A DNA stretch of 11,616 nt from Pseudomonadota bacterium. Its GTDB lineage: Bacteria > Pseudomonadota > Gammaproteobacteria > Steroidobacterales > Steroidobacteraceae. The position numbers and the translations under genes were made by a program. The stretch covers positions 1 through 11,616 of the forward strand of contig JAKADE010000052.1 of assembly GCA_021820785.1 (NCBI GenBank). Reading direction: 5' to 3'. The notes under the pieces were generated by a model that saw only the letters and a list, made by a program, of their open reading frames with translations, made no database searches and was not told where the DNA came from. Below are positions 1,838 through 10,164 of the stretch, one piece after another. Every line of letters begins with the position of its first letter. Position 1 is the first letter of the stretch.

Positions 1838-1853
1838 CGTGATTTTTGTCACC
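1838..1853. promoter_or_regulatory. CRP/FNR-family-like palindrome upstream of cyoA
   Basis: The sequence reads GTGA-N6-TCAC (core 1839-1852), the central consensus of CRP-type sites, with a T-rich spacer. It sits about 160-170 bases upstream of the cyoA start and overlaps the stop codon (1849-1851) of the upstream regulator gene. cyo operons in other bacteria are controlled by CRP/FNR-family and other redox regulators, so control of cyoA is plausible. The distance is long for a classical activator site, and I found no convincing -35/-10 pair nearby, so the role is inferred. Confidence 0.4.
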
Positions 1854-4401
1854 CTTCCAGGGCGGCCGTCATGGCCTCGTCCTCGCTCCAGCGGGCGCCG
1901 CTGTCCATCAGCGCCTCGAGCCGCTGCGGTGCCAGCACGACGCGCAGCTGCTGCAGAATCCCCGCTTCGATCATGAGCTTCGCCGGACTGCGGCCGGCGA
2001 ACTCCTTGGAAAAGAATGCGTGTGCGTAGCCGATGAACTGGGCGGCACGCTCGAAGCGCTCCTGGCGCGCCGCGATGGTCGCCAGGTGCTGCATGCCACC
2101 GGCGATCAGCACCGTATCGAGCTCGCTGTCCTCGGCGAGCGGCAGTCCCTCGCGCAGTGCCGCGCTTGCCGCATCGATTTCGTCGTGCGCGATGAGGTAG
2201 CCGGCCAGGTTGCATAGCGCATGTCCGAGCAGCCCCGTGCGCCGTGCCGCGCGCGCCAGCGCGATCACTTCGCGCGCACCGGCGATGGCCGCATCGACGC
2301 GGCCCTCGGCGAACTGCACCTCCGCCTTGTAGATGAGCGCCCGCCACGCCCAGAAGTCTGCATGCGAGCGCTCCCCGGCGAGGAGTGCCTCGTCGAGCCG
2401 TGCCCGCGCCGCCTCGTACTGTCCGGCGACCGTGTGCGCGATGCCGAGATTGGTCAGGCAGAGCGCGAAGCTCTTCGGCTGCGCGGCGGCCGAAAGCATC
2501 CGGCGGCTCTCCTGCAGCGCCTCGAGGCCCTCCTCCGGTGCCCCGGTGCGTGCCAGGTTGAGGCCGTAGAACGCGAGTGCCCGGGCGAGGTCGAGCGGTT
2601 CGCCCGACTCGCGCAGCAACGCGACCGCGCGCCGCAGCGCCGGCACGGCCCGCCCGCGCGGCTCGCCCGTGGACAGAAAGCCGTAACCGAACCACAGACG
2701 CGCCTCGAGCGAGCGCGGCGTCTCACTGCTCAGCGCCGCGGTGGCGCGCTCGAGGCGCGAGCGTCCCTCGGGCATCAGCGACAGCAGATACCACAGCAGG
2801 TACGAGCAGGCCGCCAGTTCGACCCCGATCTGCGCATCACCGTCGGCGCCGAACGCCCAGTCGAGCGCGACGCGCACGTTGTCGATCTCCGGGCCGACCT
2901 TCTCCAGCCATTCGACCGACGGCGTTCGTTCCCAGACCAGATGCGCGTTCTGCAGCAGATCGCGGAAGTAGCGCGCATGCAGACGCGCCAGCGGCCCGAA
3001 CTCACCGCTGTCGGCGAGCTTCTCCATCGCGTAGGCATGCGTGGTCTCGAGCAACCGGTAGCGCCGCTGCGCTGCGGACGGATCGGCCACCACCAGCGAC
3101 TTGTCGACCAGTTCGGCAATCCGGCTGACGACCTCCCACTCCGGCAGCGCCGCATCGGCGACCACCTGCCCGGCGGCCTCGAGCGTGAAGCTGCCGGCGA
3201 ACACGGCCAGCCGGCGCAGCACGATGCGGTCCGGCTCGGCCAGCAGCCGGTGACTCCAATCGAGCGTGGCGCGCAGCGTCTGGTGGCGCGGCAGCGCCGT
3301 GCGCCGCCCGCCGGTGAGCACGTGGAAGCGCAGGTCGAGCCGCTGCGCCAGGCCATCGATGCCGAGCGCCGCGGAGCGCGCGGCGGCCAATTCGATCGCG
3401 AGCGGGATGCCATCGAGGCGCCGGCAGATCATCGCCACCGTGGCCGCATTGCGCTCGTTGAGTTCGAATTGCGGATCGGCGGCCTGGGCCCGCGCGACGA
3501 ACAGACGCACCGCGCCGTGGCGCTGTGTGCTCGCGAGCCCGGCGGTGTGCTCGGCCGGAAACTCCAGCGGCCGCAGCCGCAGCGTGCACTCTCCCTCGAT
3601 GCCGAGCGGCTCCTGGCTGGTGGCGAGAATGCTGAGCTGGGGCGCCGCGGCGAGCAGCGTCTCGGCCTCGCGGGCTGCAGCGCTGATCAGATGTTCACAG
3701 TTGTCGAGCACCAGCAGCAGCTTGCGCTCGCGCAGCGCCGCGGCGAGCCGCTCACCAGTCCAGCGTCCGGTACCGCTCTGCAGACCGAGCGCGGCATGCA
3801 TGGCGCTCGCCACCAGTTCCGGGTCGGCGAGCGGGGCGAGCTCCGCCAGCCACACCCCGTCGGGAAATTCGTCGAGCGCCTCGCGCGCCGCCTCGAGCGC
3901 CAGGCGGGTCTTGCCGATGCCGCCTGTGCCGACCAGCGTCACCAGCCGGTTGTGCTGCAGCAGCTCGTGCACCGTGGCGAGTTCGGCCTCGCGGCCGATG
4001 AAGTCCGACATCGCCGCCGGCAGATTGGTCGGCGGCGCGGGCGCCTCGGCCGCGCTGCGCGCACTGTCGCTCTCGGAGAGCTCACGCACCTCGCCGGTGA
4101 AGCGATACCCGCGCAGCGGCACGGTGACGATGAGATTGCGGTCCTTGCCGAGCGCCTTGCGCAGCGCCGAGATCTGTACCTGGATGTTGCTCTCTTCGAC
4201 CACGATGCCCGGCCAGGCGCGCGCGAGCAGCTCTTCCTTGGTCACGAGGTCGCCGTGTGCCTCGAGCAGCACCAGCAGCACGTCGAAGGCCCGGGAGCCG
4301 AGCGCAATGGGCTTATCGCCGCTGCGCAGCTCGCGCTGGCGGATCAGCAGCCGAAAGCGTCCGAACTCGAGGCAGTTCGCGCCTCGCGCAATACCGTGCA
4401 T
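1849..4401 (-). CDS. Winged-helix / AAA-type ATPase / helical-repeat transcriptional regulator
   Basis: An 850-residue signal-dependent transcription factor of the AfsR/MalT-like style. Residues ~10-105 form an OmpR/PhoB-type DNA-binding winged helix: the segment GSRAFDVLLVLLEAHGDLVT, then a recognition-helix region SNIQVQISALRKALG and the wing signature VPLRGYRF. A linker leads to an ATPase with Walker A GTGGIGKT (158-165) and Walker B LLLVLDNCEHL (228-238), followed by a winged or lid region and a long alpha-helical tail (~530-850) rich in alanine, leucine and arginine that resembles TPR repeats. There is no phospho-acceptor receiver domain. The start at 4401 is preferred because upstream codons in the same frame are low-complexity and the conserved domain begins just after it; the Shine-Dalgarno is weak. 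The inducer and target genes are unknown. It lies upstream of cyoA in the same direction and divergent from the secreted protein at 4593, so either could be a target. Confidence 0.88.
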   Translation of the reverse strand: MHGIARGANCLEFGRFRLLIRQRELRSGDKPIALGSRAFDVLLVLLEAHGDLVTKEELLARAWPGIVVEESNIQVQISALRKALGKDRNLIVTVPLRGYRFTGEVRELSESDSARSAAEAPAPPTNLPAAMSDFIGREAELATVHELLQHNRLVTLVGTGGIGKTRLALEAAREALDEFPDGVWLAELAPLADPELVASAMHAALGLQSGTGRWTGERLAAALRERKLLLVLDNCEHLISAAAREAETLLAAAPQLSILATSQEPLGIEGECTLRLRPLEFPAEHTAGLASTQRHGAVRLFVARAQAADPQFELNERNAATVAMICRRLDGIPLAIELAAARSAALGIDGLAQRLDLRFHVLTGGRRTALPRHQTLRATLDWSHRLLAEPDRIVLRRLAVFAGSFTLEAAGQVVADAALPEWEVVSRIAELVDKSLVVADPSAAQRRYRLLETTHAYAMEKLADSGEFGPLARLHARYFRDLLQNAHLVWERTPSVEWLEKVGPEIDNVRVALDWAFGADGDAQIGVELAACSYLLWYLLSLMPEGRSRLERATAALSSETPRSLEARLWFGYGFLSTGEPRGRAVPALRRAVALLRESGEPLDLARALAFYGLNLARTGAPEEGLEALQESRRMLSAAAQPKSFALCLTNLGIAHTVAGQYEAARARLDEALLAGERSHADFWAWRALIYKAEVQFAEGRVDAAIAGAREVIALARAARRTGLLGHALCNLAGYLIAHDEIDAASAALREGLPLAEDSELDTVLIAGGMQHLATIAARQERFERAAQFIGYAHAFFSKEFAGRSPAKLMIEAGILQQLRVVLAPQRLEALMDSGARWSEDEAMTAALEG

Positions 4402-4460
4402 GAAATTGGCTGGTCCAAAGGTCTCGGGACGGCGCACCGGCTCGCGGATCCCACCGCGAA

Positions 4461-4592: not shown

Positions 4593-6497
4593 ATGCTCAA
4601 GTTCCGGCAGTCTCTTGCCGCCACGCTGGCGCTGCTGTGCGCCGCGACTGCCTGGTCGGCGCCGGCGCCGTACCGCAATTTCAAGGTCACCGTGTACATC
4701 CCGGTGCGCGTGGTCAAGCGCATGGCGCGGGATCCGGCCTGGATGCGCTCGAGCTGGCGCACCATCGCCCGCCGGCTGCACGTCGACCAGGTCTTCATCG
4801 AGAGCTACCGTGCGGGCGACAGCGCGACCGGCGCCGAACTGACCCGCGTGAAGCACTTCTTTCAGGCGCATCACGTCGCGGTGGCCGGCGGCATGGCCAT
4901 GCTCGGCCCCGGCGGCAACGGCCAGTTCAACACCCTCGATTACGCGCTGCCTGAGGATCGGGCGCTGACGCGGCGCATGGCCGCGCTCACCGCCAGGCAC
5001 TTCAACGAGTTCGTGCTCGACGATCTGTACTTCTTCAACACCAAGAGCCCGGCGGACATTGCCGCCAAGGGCTCGCGCACATGGTCGCAGTACCGCATGC
5101 AGACCATGGATGACGTGTCGCGCAACCTGATCCTGAAGCCCGCCGAGGCCGCCAACCCCAAGGTGCGCGTCATCATCAAGTTCCCGAATTTCTACCCCTC
5201 GTTCCAGGGCATGGGGTTCGATCTGGTGCACGAGCCGAAGATCTTCCCGGAGATCTGGACGGGCGATGAGACCCGCTACGCGCCGAGCACCGATCAGCAG
5301 CTGCTGCCCTACGAGAGCTACGAGATCTTCCGCTACTTCGAGAACATCGCCCCGGGACGCAACGGCGGCGGCTGGGTCGATCCCATCGCCATGCATGACC
5401 TGGACCGCTACGCCGAGCAACTCTGGGACACCATTCTCGCCAAGGCGCCGGCGATCAACCTGTTCGAGTACACGGACCTGCTGCGCACGGCCAACCCGAA
5501 GAACCGCGCCGCCTGGCAGGACCTGCCGACGACGTTCAACTACTGGCAGATGCTGCGCCAGTGCTGCGGCCTGCCGGGCCGCCCGGGCGCCAAACGGCCG
5601 CGGCTCGCCAACGTGGTCGCCTACTCGCTGCGCAAGGTCGATCGCATTGCCGGGGCGCTCGGCCAGCCGGTCGGGCTCGCCACCTATCGGCCGCTCGACT
5701 CCAGCGGCGAGGACTTCCTGCCCGAGATGCTCGGCATGATCGGAATTCCGATCGAGATGTTGCCGCACTGGCCGCACGCCAGGACCGTGCTGCTCACGGA
5801 AGCGGCGCGAAAGGATCCGCACATCGTCACGCAGATCGAAGCCCACCTGCGCGCCGGCGGGCACGTCATCATCACCTCGGGGCTGCTGCGGGCACTGCAG
5901 CACCGCGGCTTGCGCCAGATCACGGACATGCACGTCACTCACCTGATCGCCGCCCCCACCCGCTACGTCGCGGGCTTCGGCTTCGGTGGCGGCGTGATGC
6001 TCGGCAGGAGCCGGCCGATCCTCTTCCCGCTGATTCACTTCTACACCAACGAGGACTGGGCGGTGGTGCGCGGACTCGATGATCAGGGCGGCGTGCCGCT
6101 GCTGCTGATGGATCACTATGGCAAAGGCGAGCTGTACGTACTGAACGTGCCCGAGGAGCAGAACGACTTCTACTCCCTGCCGCCGCGCGTCCTCGATGCA
6201 CTGCGGCGCTTCCTCACGCCCGGCCTGCCGGTACGGCTCGAGGGACCTGCCGACGTCAGCCTGTTCGAATACGCCAATGGCACGTTCGTCGTGCAGTCCT
6301 TCCGCAACCATCCGGTCGCGGTACGGGTGATCGGCGGCTTCGAGCGCATCGAGCGCCTGACCAACGGGGTGGTGCTTGGCGGCGAACCGGTCCGACACGG
6401 CGGCCCGTTCGCAGCGCGCCCGGGCACACCGGCGCGCTACGGGTATGAACTGCGCATCGAACCACACAGCCTGGTCGCGTTCCGCGAACTGCACTGA
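4593..6497 (+). CDS. Secreted protein, probably TIM-barrel glycoside-hydrolase-like with a GATase-like domain
   Basis: A 634-residue protein with a Sec signal peptide (MLKFRQSLAATLALLCAATA, cleavage probably after WSA at residue 23), so periplasmic or outside the cell. A strong GAGGGGG ribosome-binding site supports the start. Residues ~28-310 look like a beta/alpha barrel with acidic residues at strand ends, typical of glycosidases: FIESY (E70), VLDDLYFF (D143, D144), EIWTGDETR (E220, D225, E226) and NLFEYTD (E292). Residues ~330-530 look like a glutamine-amidotransferase-like Rossmann fold (GGHVIITSGLL), and the last ~100 residues look like a beta-sandwich. This order recalls the A-B-C domains of GH42-type beta-galactosidases, but I cannot assign it to a named family and the substrate is unknown. 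It is followed by a stem-loop and then gph; the regulator upstream is divergent. Confidence 0.8.
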   Translation: MLKFRQSLAATLALLCAATAWSAPAPYRNFKVTVYIPVRVVKRMARDPAWMRSSWRTIARRLHVDQVFIESYRAGDSATGAELTRVKHFFQAHHVAVAGGMAMLGPGGNGQFNTLDYALPEDRALTRRMAALTARHFNEFVLDDLYFFNTKSPADIAAKGSRTWSQYRMQTMDDVSRNLILKPAEAANPKVRVIIKFPNFYPSFQGMGFDLVHEPKIFPEIWTGDETRYAPSTDQQLLPYESYEIFRYFENIAPGRNGGGWVDPIAMHDLDRYAEQLWDTILAKAPAINLFEYTDLLRTANPKNRAAWQDLPTTFNYWQMLRQCCGLPGRPGAKRPRLANVVAYSLRKVDRIAGALGQPVGLATYRPLDSSGEDFLPEMLGMIGIPIEMLPHWPHARTVLLTEAARKDPHIVTQIEAHLRAGGHVIITSGLLRALQHRGLRQITDMHVTHLIAAPTRYVAGFGFGGGVMLGRSRPILFPLIHFYTNEDWAVVRGLDDQGGVPLLLMDHYGKGELYVLNVPEEQNDFYSLPPRVLDALRRFLTPGLPVRLEGPADVSLFEYANGTFVVQSFRNHPVAVRVIGGFERIERLTNGVVLGGEPVRHGGPFAARPGTPARYGYELRIEPHSLVAFRELH

Positions 6498-7222: not shown

Positions 7223-7238
7223 GCCGCCCGAGGGCTCA
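7220..7238. terminator. Small palindrome joining two convergent stop codons
   Basis: TGAGCC (7220-7225) and GGCTCA (7233-7238) form a 6-bp stem with a 7-base loop. The first three bases are the gph stop and the last three are the complement of the methyltransferase stop. It may act weakly as a bidirectional terminator, but it is short and has no T-run. Confidence 0.3.
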
Positions 7239-7997
7239 GTCGAGCGTGCCGAAGAACACCAGCGTCTTGTAGGGAAACACGACCCGCCCGTCGCGCTGAT
7301 GGCGCTCGAAGATCTCGCGCAGGCCGGCGAGCAGCGGCTCATGATCGGGATGACCCGGCTCGGGCACGTACGAGGACGACAGGGCCCGCCCTTTCAGCCC
7401 ATCGAAATCGAAAACCTGCTGATTGGCAAAGGTGCGGCACTCGGGCTCGCGGCCGAAGAACCGTTGCATGGTCGGTCCGTACGCCCGCAGGCTGCGCACC
7501 TGGTCGTATTCCGGCGCATAGCGGCGCAGCAGCGCCTCGTAGTCCGCCAGCAGCGGCGCCGGATCGTCCGCGCGCTCGTTCCAGAGCAGACCCACCTGCC
7601 CCCCCTCGACCAGGATCCGAAGCGCCTCGCGGCGCGTTTTTTCCGGATCGAACCAGTGGAAGGCCTGTCCGGCCGTGACCCAATCGACGCTGTGCGGCGC
7701 GAGCGTGGTGACTTCGGCGGTCCCCGCCACGCTCGTAAACCCCGCACGGCCGGCGAGCAACTGCTCGGCGGCCTCGCGCATCTCGCGATTCGGCTCCACG
7801 GCCCAGACCTCGAGGCCTGCCTCGAGCAGTTGCGAGGTGAGGATCCCGGTGCCCGAGCCGAGGTCGGCCACGCGCCTTCCCGGCCGCAGTCCGCGCGCCT
7901 CGCGCAGGAACCGCAAGGCGTCATCCGGGTAATGCGGCCGATACTTCACGTAATCGGCGACGCGGCTGGAGAAGCGCTGGGTGGAGTCGATGGCCAT
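7236..7997 (-). CDS. Class I SAM-dependent methyltransferase
   Basis: A 253-residue cytoplasmic methyltransferase. The N-terminus (RFSSRVADYVKYRPHYP) and the SAM-binding motif I VADLGSGTG (43-51), the acidic end of strand 2 (E68 in AVEPN) and the motif GQAFHWFD (110-117) place it in the Methyltransf_11/YafE/Tmt1-like group that includes trans-aconitate- and other small-molecule methyltransferases. The substrate cannot be told. The ATG at 7997 has no Shine-Dalgarno; instead a TATACT hexamer lies seven bases before it, so the message may be leaderless. The gene converges on gph with only 13 bases between the two stop codons. It is not visibly in an operon. Confidence 0.88.
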   Translation of the reverse strand: MAIDSTQRFSSRVADYVKYRPHYPDDALRFLREARGLRPGRRVADLGSGTGILTSQLLEAGLEVWAVEPNREMREAAEQLLAGRAGFTSVAGTAEVTTLAPHSVDWVTAGQAFHWFDPEKTRREALRILVEGGQVGLLWNERADDPAPLLADYEALLRRYAPEYDQVRSLRAYGPTMQRFFGREPECRTFANQQVFDFDGLKGRALSSSYVPEPGHPDHEPLLAGLREIFERHQRDGRVVFPYKTLVFFGTLD

Positions 7998-8010: not shown

Positions 8011-8093
8011 CGGCCTGCCCGCTGACCGGGCGGGTGCGAATCAGGGGGGCACGGCCGTCCTTCGAACGCGAGCCGGAGAATTCCTCCACATGG

Positions 8094-8126
8094 TTCACAC
8101 TCGGTTCAGGGCAAACATGCGAGACT
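8094..8126 (+). promoter_or_regulatory. Putative activator box and -10 of unit 1
   Basis: TTCAC (8094-8098) and TTCAG (8105-8109) form a direct repeat with an 11-base period, followed after 11 bases by GAGACT (8121-8126). The geometry matches that of the other three units exactly, though this is the most diverged copy. Confidence 0.45.
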
Positions 8127-8133
8127 TCCTCCC

Positions 8134-8261
8134 GCACCGGTGCTGAGCGTGGCTCCCGGACGGCGCAAGATTCCCCCCGTGCGCCACCCTTTATTGAGCC
8201 TCGTCCCGGATTCGAGTCACCTCGCCCGGTGCGCCTCTCCCCTCTCCCCTCTCCCCTCTCC
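8134..8261 (+). ncRNA. Putative small RNA, unit 1 of the array
   Basis: The predicted transcript starts about seven bases after the -10 hexamer at GCACCGG (8134-8140), which can pair with CCGGTGC (8226-8232). Inside, GGCGCA (8162-8167) pairs with TGCGCC (8180-8185) around a 12-base loop containing CCCCCC. A second hairpin CTCG/CGAG surrounds GTCCCGGATT near 8200-8217. The 3' tail is a (CTCTCCC)n tract. The 5' arm can also fold on itself (GCACCGGTGC is a palindrome), so this unit may be degenerate. Confidence 0.4.
8235..8261 (+). repeat. CTCTCCC microsatellite, 3.9 copies
   Basis: A perfect 7-bp tandem repeat (CTCTCCC three times plus six bases) directly follows the 3' arm of unit 1. Such repeats can change copy number by slippage; here it would alter the length of the pyrimidine tail of the putative RNA. 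Confidence 0.85.
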
Positions 8262-8348
8262 GGAAATATCCCTGCCAGGCCGCGCTCGCGCACGGCGCTG
8301 CGCAGACCCATGCGTCGGCGCACGCACCACGCGGCATTCGTTCCGCCA

Positions 8349-8381
8349 TTCACGGTGAGTTCAGCGCACCGATGCGACACT
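8349..8381 (+). promoter_or_regulatory. Putative activator box and -10 of unit 2
   Basis: TTCAC (8349-8353), TTCAG (8360-8364) and GACACT (8376-8381), with the same spacings as in the other units. Confidence 0.5.
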
Positions 8382-8387
8382 GATTCC

Positions 8388-8500
8388 GCACCGGAGCCCC
8401 AGGATGCGGCTCCCGGACGGCGCAAATCCCCCCCTCCTGCGCCAGAGTGTCAGAACTCGCCTGGATGCGAGCCGCGGGCTCCGGTGCTTTTTCCCCTCCC
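8388..8500 (+). ncRNA. Putative small RNA, unit 2 of the array
   Basis: The predicted 5' end GCACCGGAGCC (8388-8398) is perfectly complementary over 11 bases to GGCTCCGGTGC (8477-8487), the longest closing stem of the four, and is followed at once by TTTTT (8488-8492) and CCCC, an intrinsic-terminator-like end. The inner hairpin GGCGCA/TGCGCC (8419-8424 with 8438-8443) has a 13-base C-rich loop, and CTCGC/GCGAG (near 8456-8471) forms another hairpin. The resulting RNA would be about 105 bases. Confidence 0.5.
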
Positions 8501-8602
8501 ACCCCTGCGCACAACATGACCGCCATGATGCGCACCCGCCCGAACAACACCTTGGCCCGGTCGTGGCTGCGAACGGTTCGACGTGCACGCCTGTTCAGGC
8601 GA

Positions 8603-8635
8603 TTCACAGTCAGTTCAGCGCGCCGGTGCGACACT
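8603..8635 (+). promoter_or_regulatory. Putative activator box and -10 of unit 3
   Basis: TTCAC (8603-8607), TTCAG (8614-8618) and GACACT (8630-8635). A further TTCAG at 8594-8598 extends the row of half-sites, and unit 4 has a TTCAA at the equivalent place. Confidence 0.5.
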
Positions 8636-8641
8636 GCTGCT

Positions 8642-8750
8642 GCACCGGAGCGAAGTGCGGCTCCCGGACGGCGCAAATCCCCCCGTGCGCCACAATTTTC
8701 GGACGCGTCCTGGATTTGAGTCGCCTCCTCCGGTGCCTTCTCCCCCGCCC
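8642..8750 (+). ncRNA. Putative small RNA, unit 3 of the array
   Basis: The predicted 5' end GCACCGGAG (8642-8650) pairs with CTCCGGTGC (8728-8736). The inner hairpin GGCGCA/TGCGCC (8670-8675 with 8686-8691) has a 10-base loop AATCCCCCCG; a short palindrome GGACGCGTCC (8701-8710) follows an ATTTT stretch. A CCTCCTCC motif (8724-8731), complementary to Shine-Dalgarno sequences, overlaps the closing stem. The tail is C/T-rich without a T-run. Confidence 0.5.
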
Positions 8751-8849
8751 CGCACACACACCGACCGCCATCGACGAAGCAGCGCCGCCGCCGCGCGCCG
8801 CCCACTCGCTGCGGCGCATCCACCGAAGCGCTCGCCCACTTTCAACTGA

Positions 8850-8882
8850 TTCACAGTGAATTCAGCACGCCGGTGAGACACT
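8850..8882 (+). promoter_or_regulatory. Putative activator box and -10 of unit 4
   Basis: TTCAC (8850-8854), TTCAG (8861-8865) and GACACT (8877-8882), again with identical spacing; TTCAA at 8841-8845 forms an extra half-site. Confidence 0.5.
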
Positions 8883-8888
8883 GATGCT

Positions 8889-8998
8889 GCACCGGAACCG
8901 AGTGCGGTTCCCGGACGGCGCACCTTGCAACGTGCACCACAATTTTTGGACTTGTCCTGGATTTGGGTCGCCCCGGCCGGTGCCTTCTCTCCCTCCCC
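8889..8998 (+). ncRNA. Putative small RNA, unit 4 of the array
   Basis: GCACCGG (8889-8895) pairs with CCGGTGC (8977-8983). The inner hairpin has changed on both sides: GGCGCAC (8917-8923) against GTGCACC (8932-8938), six of seven pairs kept, with an 8-base loop that has lost the C-run. GGACTTGTCC (8948-8957) replaces the GGACGCGTCC of unit 3, keeping the GGAC/GTCC arms. A pyrimidine tract ends the unit just before the strong hairpin at 9004. Confidence 0.45.
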
Positions 8999-9003
8999 AA
9001 ATG

Positions 9004-9036
9004 CAGACGGGGTTCGCCACTGGCGAACCCCGTCTG
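9004..9036. terminator. Near-perfect 16-bp hairpin between the array and the lipoprotein gene
   Basis: Bases 9004-9019 are perfectly complementary to 9021-9036 around one central base (a real loop would be 3-5 bases). It lies 40 bases beyond the stop of the minus-strand lipoprotein gene and just after unit 4 on the plus strand, so it could stop transcription from both sides. Neither side has a good T-run, which lowers confidence in intrinsic termination. Confidence 0.65.
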
Positions 9037-9075
9037 TCTCTACACTTCCTCGACGGCCCGCGACCGGGCCGCGGA

Positions 9076-9780
9076 TTATTCGCCGACGGCCTGCGGCGCG
9101 AAATTCACCGTGGTCGTCCAGGTGGGAACCTGGGTCGAGTCGGTGGTAATCGCGAGTTTCACAGTGGCCTTGCGCTCACGCGAGGCGAGCACGATTCCCG
9201 TCTGCGTGTCACAAGACGCCGAAATCGGGAACGTACTGACGATGTGCACGGCCTTCGCCGCCAGCACATCGGCCCGGCTGGTGCTGGCCGGCTCGATCTT
9301 CGCGCCGGTGATGTTCGTGTTCTGCGCCGTCGCGAACTCGTAGTTCACCGAACCCTCCCACACGCCGCGTTTCGGCGCGCCCGCGGTGCTGATGACCGCA
9401 TCCTTGGTGAGCGGCGGCTGCGAGAGCTGGACCTCGATCGGCTGCGCCGGGAAGAGCTTCTGGCGGGTCGCCATGCCCTGCAGGCGCCACACCGCCAGAT
9501 ACTGCACCGGGAAGCTGCTCTTGCAGCGCACCGGGTACATGGTGCGGAACTGGGTGCCCGTGCCGTCGGAATGCAGAGGCACCTTGCCGCCGCCTCCGAC
9601 CTGGAACAGATAAATCGGCTGACTGACCAGGGCGCCGGACTTCACCGTCGCCGAAATCGGATACATGCCGATGTCCGGGTTGGCCTGCATCTGCGTCGGC
9701 GTCTGGTTTTGCACCTTCACGCCGCAGCCTGCCAACGCCAACGCCGCCACACCGATTGAAAACCGAGCTACCTGACGCAT
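9076..9780 (-). CDS. Putative lipoprotein of unknown function
   Basis: A 234-residue protein. The start at 9780 is well supported by GGAGGGAGG just upstream and by an immediate lipoprotein signal: MRQVARFSIGVAALALAGC, lipobox LAGC, lipidated C19. The residue after the cysteine is glycine, not aspartate, so by the usual +2 rule it would go to the outer membrane. The mature part is rich in beta-strand-like segments, with two later cysteines (in VRCKSSF and SASCDTQ) that could form a disulfide. I recognise no family. An in-frame upstream ATG at 9924 is ignored because it would bury the signal peptide. It appears monocistronic, with a stem-loop after the stop. Confidence 0.85.
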   Translation of the reverse strand: MRQVARFSIGVAALALAGCGVKVQNQTPTQMQANPDIGMYPISATVKSGALVSQPIYLFQVGGGGKVPLHSDGTGTQFRTMYPVRCKSSFPVQYLAVWRLQGMATRQKLFPAQPIEVQLSQPPLTKDAVISTAGAPKRGVWEGSVNYEFATAQNTNITGAKIEPASTSRADVLAAKAVHIVSTFPISASCDTQTGIVLASRERKATVKLAITTDSTQVPTWTTTVNFAPQAVGE

Positions 9781-9825
9781 GCCGCCTCCCTCCGAGACGC
9801 AATTCTGTGAACGAAACCGACCCAG

Positions 9826-9960: not shown

Positions 9961-10164
9961 TTATTTCTTCTTGCGTGCGCCGGCCCGCTTGGCCGCCCGG
10001 AAGGAAATTCCAGCGCGCATGGCCTTCTGCTGCACCGCAGCCGGGGTACGGCCGAGCTTCTTCGCCACTTCGGTCGTCGGAGTGCCCGCCTTCGCGAGCG
10101 CCTTCAAAGTCTTCAGTTCACTGGCGCTCCAGGACGCGCCATCGTTCGGGGGACGTTTCGCCAT
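9961..10164 (-). CDS. Small basic helix-turn-helix-like protein
   Basis: A 67-residue protein. The start at 10164 has a GGGAG ribosome-binding site, and a predicted promoter lies upstream; a longer in-frame start at 10212 would lie close to the predicted transcription start and lacks a ribosome-binding site. Residues ~11-53 resemble a Myb/SANT or sigma-region-4-like trihelical DNA-binding fold: SWSASELKTLKALAKAG, then TPTTEVAKKLGRTPAAVQQKAMRAG, where the second part reads like helix-turn-recognition helix. The tail (FRAAKRAGARKKK) is strongly basic and could bind nucleic acid. It is probably a small DNA-binding or nucleoid-associated protein; partners and targets are unknown. It has its own promoter and terminator, so is a single-gene unit. 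Confidence 0.82.
   Translation of the reverse strand: MAKRPPNDGASWSASELKTLKALAKAGTPTTEVAKKLGRTPAAVQQKAMRAGISFRAAKRAGARKKK

What the first reader, a model, noticed from the sequence alone, without database searches (positions are those of the whole stretch)
8094..9000. Four tandem copies of a structured, promoter-bearing unit: a candidate new small-RNA family
The sequence shows four units at 247-255 bp spacing, each with ~150 bp conserved and ~100 bp mostly variable. What is conserved is not a reading frame but an ordered set of elements: direct-repeat box, -10-like hexamer, closing stem arms, a 17-mer, an inner hairpin and a pyrimidine tract. This is the layout expected of duplicated small RNA genes, each with its own promoter, as known for tandem sRNA arrays such as CcsR1-4 of Rhodobacter or the Qrr and LhrC groups. 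I know of no family with these exact motifs, so it may be undescribed; novelty is inference from memory only.
Basis: partly seen in the sequence, partly recalled or inferred. Interest (0 to 1): 0.8.

Follow-up and report, generated by a model that had tools for sequence, protein, structure and literature searches.

The report
Four tandem regulator-driven small RNA genes
The window carries four neighbouring copies of what looks like a small structured RNA gene, each behind the same activator-type promoter; the family occurs in many species of one genus of uncultured bacteria, matches no family in the RNA library searched, and probably adjusts other genes when a sensor system fires.

Summary
Four units start at 8094, 8349, 8603 and 8850. 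Each has a 33-bp promoter-like box (TTCAC-N6-RTTCAG-N12-ANACT) and, 6-7 nt on, a ~100-nt RNA folding as one irregular hairpin closed by GCACCG/CGGTGC, then a ~14-nt pyrimidine tail. A covariance model finds 51 copies in 43 of 58 genomes of one gammaproteobacterial genus and in 0 of 159 other genomes of its family. On 55 copies 13 of 24 pairs show double changes with pairing kept; G-U cells outnumber A-C cells 38 to 5, so the + strand is the RNA. Rfam has no match. The box pattern occurs 27 times in 20 genomes, 26 of them at this RNA. It looks like a response-regulator direct-repeat promoter, near the CreB/BlrA cre/blr-tag, but only one of five RNA-positive genomes has a protein that groups, weakly, with CreB: the regulator is unidentified. 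Three genomes keep the flanking genes but lack the RNA. Most likely: response-regulator-activated trans-acting sRNAs, working like the CiaR-driven csRNAs. Transcription is untested and target pairing is inference; the C-rich apical loop is largely confined to this subclade.

The parts
8094..8126 (+). promoter-like box of unit 1: TTCAC-N6-GTTCAG-N12-AGACT
8134..8247 (+). RNA unit 1 (closing stem 8134-8139 with 8227-8232; bulge AUUC 8210-8213); 3' end inferred, pyrimidine tract runs on to 8261
   Evidence: model R2 hit 8130-8237; tail; stem and bulge coordinates read
8349..8381 (+). promoter-like box of unit 2
8388..8500 (+). RNA unit 2 (closing stem 8388-8393 with 8482-8487, five T after it; bulge AUGC 8465-8468); 3' end inferred
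   Evidence: model R2 hit 8384-8492; coordinates read
8603..8635 (+). promoter-like box of unit 3
8642..8750 (+). RNA unit 3 (closing stem 8642-8647 with 8731-8736; bulge AUUU 8714-8717); 3' end inferred
   Evidence: model R2 hit 8638-8741; coordinates read
8850..8882 (+). promoter-like box of unit 4
8889..8998 (+). RNA unit 4 (closing stem 8889-8894 with 8978-8983; bulge AUUU 8961-8964; apical loop without C-run); 3' end inferred
   Evidence: model R2 hit 8885-8988; loop; coordinates read
9004..9036 (.). perfect 16-bp inverted repeat between unit 4 and the lipoprotein-like gene of the other strand; possibly a shared terminator; the first arm of a like sequence (ACGGGGTTCGCC or ACGGGGCTCGCC) follows the last unit in a number of relatives
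   Evidence: I5; relatives' tails listed; terminator function inferred

Best explanation
Each unit is a small-RNA gene. An OmpR/PhoB-class response regulator binds the 11-bp direct repeat TTCAC-N6-RTTCAG, which stands in for the -35, and recruits RNA polymerase to the -10 (GATACT/GACACT). Transcription starts at or just before the closing stem; the ~100-nt RNA folds as one irregular hairpin and ends in or after a U- then C-rich tail. The RNA acts in trans; in this subclade most likely by pairing its C-rich apical loop and/or pyrimidine tail with G-rich ribosome-binding sites. Copy number raises dose, and differing apical loops (unit 4 has no C-run) suggest that copies have diverged in targets. 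Well supported by comparison: structured RNA, strand, conserved box with fixed spacing that is nearly confined to this RNA. Inferred: that the box is an active promoter, that a response regulator is the activator, trans action, antisense pairing.
For: Covariation on 55 copies: 97.0% of 1294 cells paired, 13 of 24 pairs with double changes, 114 double-change cells against 35.6 in shuffles and at most 32 when slid (that alignment is fitted to the model and leans to the structure). On the MAFFT alignment A3 of 32 copies: 11 pairs and 66 cells, 0 of 500 shuffles as high, at most 20 cells when slid; one of the five measures, further pair types, was reached by 13 of 500 shuffles. Pairs 23-97 and 40-59 turn from G-C to C-G between subclades. 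G-U 38 against A-C 5 cells points to the + strand (10 rows with gaps moved). Box: 48 of 51 model hits and 4 of 4 window units have TTCA-N7-TTCAG-N12-ANACT, with the stem 6-7 nt on in 51 and 10 nt on in 1 (hits, boxes, exceptions). Pairwise identity 0.29-0.38 upstream, 0.67-0.81 in the box (42 copies). Pattern in 20 RNA-positive genomes: 27 sites, 26 at this RNA, reversed control 0; 15 RNA-negative genomes: 0 sites, reversed control 1. Gene neighbourhood: of 20 loci 14 have the flanking genes on both sides and 3 on the one side that the stretch holds. C-run of 5 or more in the apical loop in 29 of 33 copies of the window's subclade. Tail 82-86% pyrimidine in the first 10 nt, 50% at 15-19. Parallels: csRNAs with TTTAAG-N5-TTTAAG (PMC3091779, passages); sX13 C-rich loops with G-rich targets (PMC3771888, passages).
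Against: No expression data. The C-run is in only 2 of 22 copies outside the subclade, so C-loop pairing cannot be the family-wide mode. The most conserved parts (closing stem, bulge AUU, a U-run) are not obvious antisense seeds. No response-regulator group is in all five RNA-positive genomes and missing from both RNA-negative ones compared, so the activator could also be something else. The U-tract is weak in several copies, so the 3' end is unsure. Unit 4 folds no better than shuffles and its bulge is predicted only 30% open. The RNA is lost in three genomes that keep the flanking genes.
Confidence: 0.65

Rival explanations
1. Protein-binding or decoy RNA (as 6S or CsrB are in general): the single closed hairpin with an invariant closing stem and AUUU bulge is a protein site, and tandem copies titrate the protein.
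For: The closing stem never varies in 5 of 6 pairs over 55 copies while other stems covary; bulge A, U, U are 52, 55 and 52 of 55; the bulge is predicted at least 0.89 open in 43 of the 48 copies in which the script found it.
Against: One site per RNA; no Rfam 6S or Csr match; apical loop and pyrimidine tail look like pairing sites in this subclade.
Confidence: 0.22
2. Cis-acting 5' leader (riboswitch or attenuator) of a downstream gene, with stand-alone copies as derived forms.
For: In the second subclade the RNA lies on the same strand just upstream of a GFA-like gene (L186, L187, L196; the GFA name is mine from the sequence, not from a search).
Against: In the window, L184 and L189 the next conserved gene is on the other strand, and in L250 and L255 the ORF listing shows no same-strand gene next (for the window mechanical ORFs cross the area); four copies in a row each with its own box; the downstream neighbour changes while RNA and box stay.
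Confidence: 0.07
3. A repeat or mobile DNA element, or a short coding repeat, without RNA function.
For: Tandem copies; open frames cross the array.
Against: No plasmid or phage match at E 1e-5; one locus in 42 of 43 positive genomes (E<=0.05); copy lengths fall on all three values modulo 3 (0: 23, 1: 15, 2: 17 of 55); covariation.
Confidence: 0.03

Closest known systems
CiaR-dependent csRNAs of Streptococcus (PMC3091779, passages read)
   Same: several similar sRNAs per genome, each with its own promoter carrying a response-regulator direct repeat of 11-bp period; sequences that could pair with Shine-Dalgarno sites
   Different: other phylum; no sequence or fold kinship claimed; csRNAs have two stem-loops with an unpaired middle, here one closed irregular hairpin; copies here are in tandem
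sX13 of Xanthomonas (PMC3771888, passages read)
   Same: gammaproteobacterial structured sRNA with C-rich apical loops aimed at G-rich motifs
   Different: three stem-loops, at the polA locus; here one closed hairpin with one apical loop, and the C-run mainly in one subclade
CcsR1-4 of Rhodobacter (papers seen in a search listing only; details recalled)
   Same: four homologous sRNAs in a row
   Different: recalled as co-transcribed with a protein gene from a stress sigma promoter and carrying CUCCUCCC motifs; here one activator-type box per copy
cre/blr-tag promoters of CreB/BlrA (PMC3660660, passages read)
   Same: TTCACnnnnnnTTCAC there, TTCAC-N6-TTCAG here
   Different: second box ends in G in 52 of 52; a protein grouping with CreB was seen in one of five RNA-positive genomes, weakly and with long branches

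Membership tests
any of 4227 Rfam families | score at or above the curated threshold | tested here: not met
   window: 0 hits at gathering; 8050-9060 at E<=5: one hit, miRNA family, 18.4 bits against a threshold of 168, at 9003-9037; 9 relatives' loci at E<=1: group II intron and snoRNA hits, none on the units
small regulatory RNA gene (general kind) | conserved structured RNA with compensatory changes | tested here: met
small regulatory RNA gene (general kind) | own promoter | tested here: inconclusive
   promoter-like box conserved at fixed spacing in 52 of 55 copies; activity not tested
small regulatory RNA gene (general kind) | transcript detected | not testable with these tools
   no RNA-seq at hand
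CreB/BlrA regulon (cre/blr-tag) | TTCAC-N6-TTCAC | tested here: not met
   second box TTCAG in 52 of 52; first box TTCAC in 47, TTCAG in 5
CreB/BlrA regulon (cre/blr-tag) | CreB orthologue in the host | tested here: inconclusive
   among 84 regulators of 7 genomes E. coli CreB joins only one protein of G002 (83/61), a join of long branches that the tool warns may be false
csRNA | CiaR box TTTAAG-N5-TTTAAG | tested here: not met
   box is TTCAC-N6-RTTCAG
sX13 | three stem-loops with C-rich loops, polA locus | tested here: not met
   one closed hairpin; neighbours are methyltransferase, lipoprotein-like and S-adenosylhomocysteine hydrolase genes
CcsR | co-transcribed copies with CUCCUCCC loops | tested here: inconclusive
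   each copy has its own box; defining features recalled, not read

The most novel reading that the evidence does not exclude
An undescribed sRNA family that nearly monopolises the promoter architecture of one response regulator, so that the sensor's main output in these bacteria is at the RNA level, and that works through its invariant closing stem and AUUU bulge (a protein site, or RNA-RNA contact between copies) with the apical loop as an exchangeable specificity element.
Probability: 0.2. Interest if true: 0.7.

Novelty: new member of a known kind. Interest (0 to 1): 0.5.

Why it matters
It adds a well-bounded candidate sRNA family, with strong covariation and a nearly exclusive promoter signature, to an uncultured genus. 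Differences in loop and copy number between species make it a natural test of how tandem sRNAs diverge, and the signature lets metatranscriptomes test it without cultures.

Tried and rejected
Sigma70 promoter scan: none found; one terminator-like site, no more than shuffles give. Rfam: nothing on the units. Plasmid and phage blastn: nothing. R1 hits judged chance: G104, the only one outside the genus (E 0.009; 16 bits, E 0.53 with R2); G032 (30.7 bits), which lies away from the locus and is not a hit with R2. Reach of the negatives: in large searches only a few candidates per genome are scored; G065, found, was missed, so weak relatives elsewhere may be missed. The class search (0 of 369) held no genome known to be positive. 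Regulator by tag search: TTCACN6TTCAS in 4 genomes (28 sites, controls 21) gave, besides the sRNA, a site before the ATP synthase operon in three genomes with other spacing; no regulator gene was found that way (7 stretches looked at). Regulator by presence and absence: 84 of the 107 proteins were compared (13 of G072 and 10 short or broken ones left out); no group fits. Target prediction was not attempted. The pattern scan of named genomes gave 115 stretches, 80 listed; 25 of the 80 were tested with R1, of which 15 hold strong hits; the rest were not tested and look like chance by their titles.

Full report
What is there. Four units of about 150 bp lie between a methyltransferase gene (7236-7997, - strand; Pfam Methyltransf_11) and a lipoprotein-like gene (9076-9783, - strand; no Pfam family at E 0.001) ('lipoprotein' is my reading of the sequence). 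Their boxes start at 8094, 8349, 8603 and 8850. Each reads TTCAC-N6-(A/G)TTCAG-N12-A-N-ACT over exactly 33 bp; GCACCG follows 6-7 nt later. The repeats are visible without any model.

Relatives. The window's own genome is not held. Blastn with unit 3 matched 19 of 60 related genomes; three of the 19 (G018, G033, G047) have only weak short matches, E 0.0027-0.005. From 27 copies I built model R1; it hit 37 of 58 genomes of the genus at E 0.1, including a second subclade at 37-50 bits. That these weaker hits are real is shown by position and by the box, neither of which is in the model. Position: of 20 loci fetched, 14 show the RNA between the methyltransferase and the lipoprotein-like, 67-aa basic and/or sahH genes, and 3 show the flanking genes on the one side that the stretch holds; the remaining three are a chance hit in G032, a non-syntenic copy in G078 and a chance hit in another genus. 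Box: printed for these copies. Model R2 from 32 copies found 51 copies in 43 of 217 genomes of the family, all 43 among the 58 of the one genus. R1 over the order gave 17 of 296, one outside the genus; R2 over the class gave 0 of 369 (no positive control). Records with R1 hits are titled MAG: Proteobacteria, Pseudomonadota or Gammaproteobacteria bacterium. That such bin names come from acid mine drainage is my recollection and comes from no call.

Structure. One irregular hairpin of 24 pairs: closing stem GCACCG/CGGUGC; a stem such as GCGGCUC/GAGUCGC; a four-base bulge, mostly AUUU; a stem CC..GGACG/CGUCC..GG; an apical stem and loop. On A3 (32 copies, MAFFT) 96.0% of cells pair, 11 pairs have double changes, 66 such cells against 23.8 in shuffles and at most 20 when slid; the count of further pair types was reached by 13 of 500 shuffles, the other four measures by none. 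On 55 model-aligned copies the figures are 97.0%, 13 and 114. Flips of G-C to C-G separate the two subclades in the second and the apical stem; G-U cells number 38 and A-C cells 5. Read from the other strand the G-U pairs would be A-C mismatches, so the + strand is the RNA. By energy, units 1-3 fold better than shuffles (z -4.3, -5.3, -3.1), unit 4 does not (z -1.2), and the - strand also shows moderate z-scores (-1.5, -3.0, -2.0, -2.0).

Conservation inside the RNA. The closing stem is invariant in 5 of 6 pairs over 55 copies; bulge A, U, U are 52, 55 and 52 of 55; a U-run in the 3' internal loop is 51 of 52, 45 of 53 and 47 of 52. A C-run of at least five in the apical loop is in 29 of 33 copies of the window's subclade and in 2 of 22 others; window unit 4 is one of the four exceptions. 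After the closing stem comes a tail with 82-86% pyrimidine in the first ten bases, U-rich then C-rich, 70% at 10-14 and 50% at 15-19. Unit 2 has five T directly after the stem; others are weaker, so termination is unproven.

Box. 48 of 51 held copies and all 4 window copies have the 33-bp pattern, counted where GCACCG or ACACCG follows within 20 nt. Positions that the pattern leaves open are also conserved: G11 in 50 of 52, C19 in 45, and G at position 16, where C was allowed, in 52 of 52. Upstream identity is low (0.29-0.38). Genome-wide, the pattern occurs 27 times in 20 RNA-positive genomes, 26 at this RNA; the reversed control gave 0. In 15 RNA-negative genomes it occurs 0 times, with one reversed-control match. 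The three copies without it are the non-syntenic copy of G078 (contig 63) and the copies in G079 and G006. A direct repeat ending 11 bases before the -10 hexamer is the layout of class II activation by OmpR/PhoB-type response regulators (established knowledge, recalled; csRNA parallel in PMC3091779, passages). The nearest named box that I found is the cre/blr-tag TTCACnnnnnnTTCAC (PMC3660660, passages). Of 84 OmpR-type regulators from seven genomes one, in G002, joins E. coli CreB (83/61, long branches); no orthologue group is in all of G026, G024, G002, G070, G004 and absent from the RNA-negative G036 and G066; seven groups are in all seven genomes. The activator may be one of these shared regulators; which one is unknown.

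History. A tree of 33 copies of the window's subclade puts the first copies of window, G026, G024 and G021 together (100/99) and their other copies together (96/99): the duplication is older than the split of these species. Copies 2 and 3 of G024 join each other (92/83), a later duplication. Three RNA-negative genomes (G036, G066, G032) keep the flanking genes but have no match at the locus, so the RNA can be lost. G001 and G061 break off inside the lipoprotein-like gene next to the locus, so their negatives mean nothing; G072 and G080 gave no sahH anchor and G011 no clear locus. The remaining seven of the 15 negatives were not examined.

Function. The best reading is a response-regulator-driven trans-acting sRNA family. 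Pairing of the C-rich loop and pyrimidine tail with G-rich ribosome-binding sites is plausible here by analogy with sX13 (PMC3771888, passages), but cannot be the family-wide mode. The invariant closing stem and bulge keep a protein-binding rival alive. A cis-leader reading does not suit the window, where the next conserved gene is on the other strand, though in the second subclade the RNA does stand before a GFA-like gene.

Novelty. No Rfam family matches, and searches of the open-licence paper library for tandem or C-rich sRNAs, the cre box (a search swamped by mammalian CREB), TTCAC boxes with sRNAs, CcsR and acid-mine small RNAs listed no description of it (listings only, with passages read in three papers). 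Subscription papers and preprints were not searched. It is a new family of a known kind.

Noticed in passing
L201 (G078:C63), L256 (G079), L257 (G006): Copies of the RNA, shorter at the apex, without the TTCA box and without the usual neighbours in the stretch fetched; L201 and L256 share a different upstream stretch ending in AACACT. A second copy of the RNA may have been rewired to another promoter.
   Followed up: partly
L324:7045, L325:7178, L326:6770: TTCAC-N6-TTCAC box conserved between a parB-like gene and the ATP synthase operon in three genomes, with TATAAT some 45 bp after it; spacing differs from the sRNA box (gene names are my reading).
   Followed up: no
window 9961-10164 (-): 67-aa basic protein without Pfam family at E 0.001; 98.4-100% identical in 8 of the 16 homologues listed and 80-90% in the other 8: very slow evolution for an unknown small protein.
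   Followed up: no
window 4593-6497 (+): 634-aa protein with a signal-like N-terminus and no Pfam match at E 0.001, found at this place in 5 of 20 fetched loci.
   Followed up: no
L001 118-847 (-): Two group II intron hits (Rfam), the nearer about 170 bp upstream of the first sRNA unit's box in G026.
   Followed up: no
window 1849-4404 (-): OmpR-type DNA-binding domain (Trans_reg_C) in one protein with AAA/NB-ARC-like and TPR-like matches, the latter below Pfam's cut-offs; next to cytochrome oxidase genes.
   Followed up: no
window 8234-8261 (+): The unit 1 tail is a 28-base pure pyrimidine tract with near-perfect CTCTCCC repeats; the first copies of G026, G024 and G021 have shorter tails without them.
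   Followed up: no
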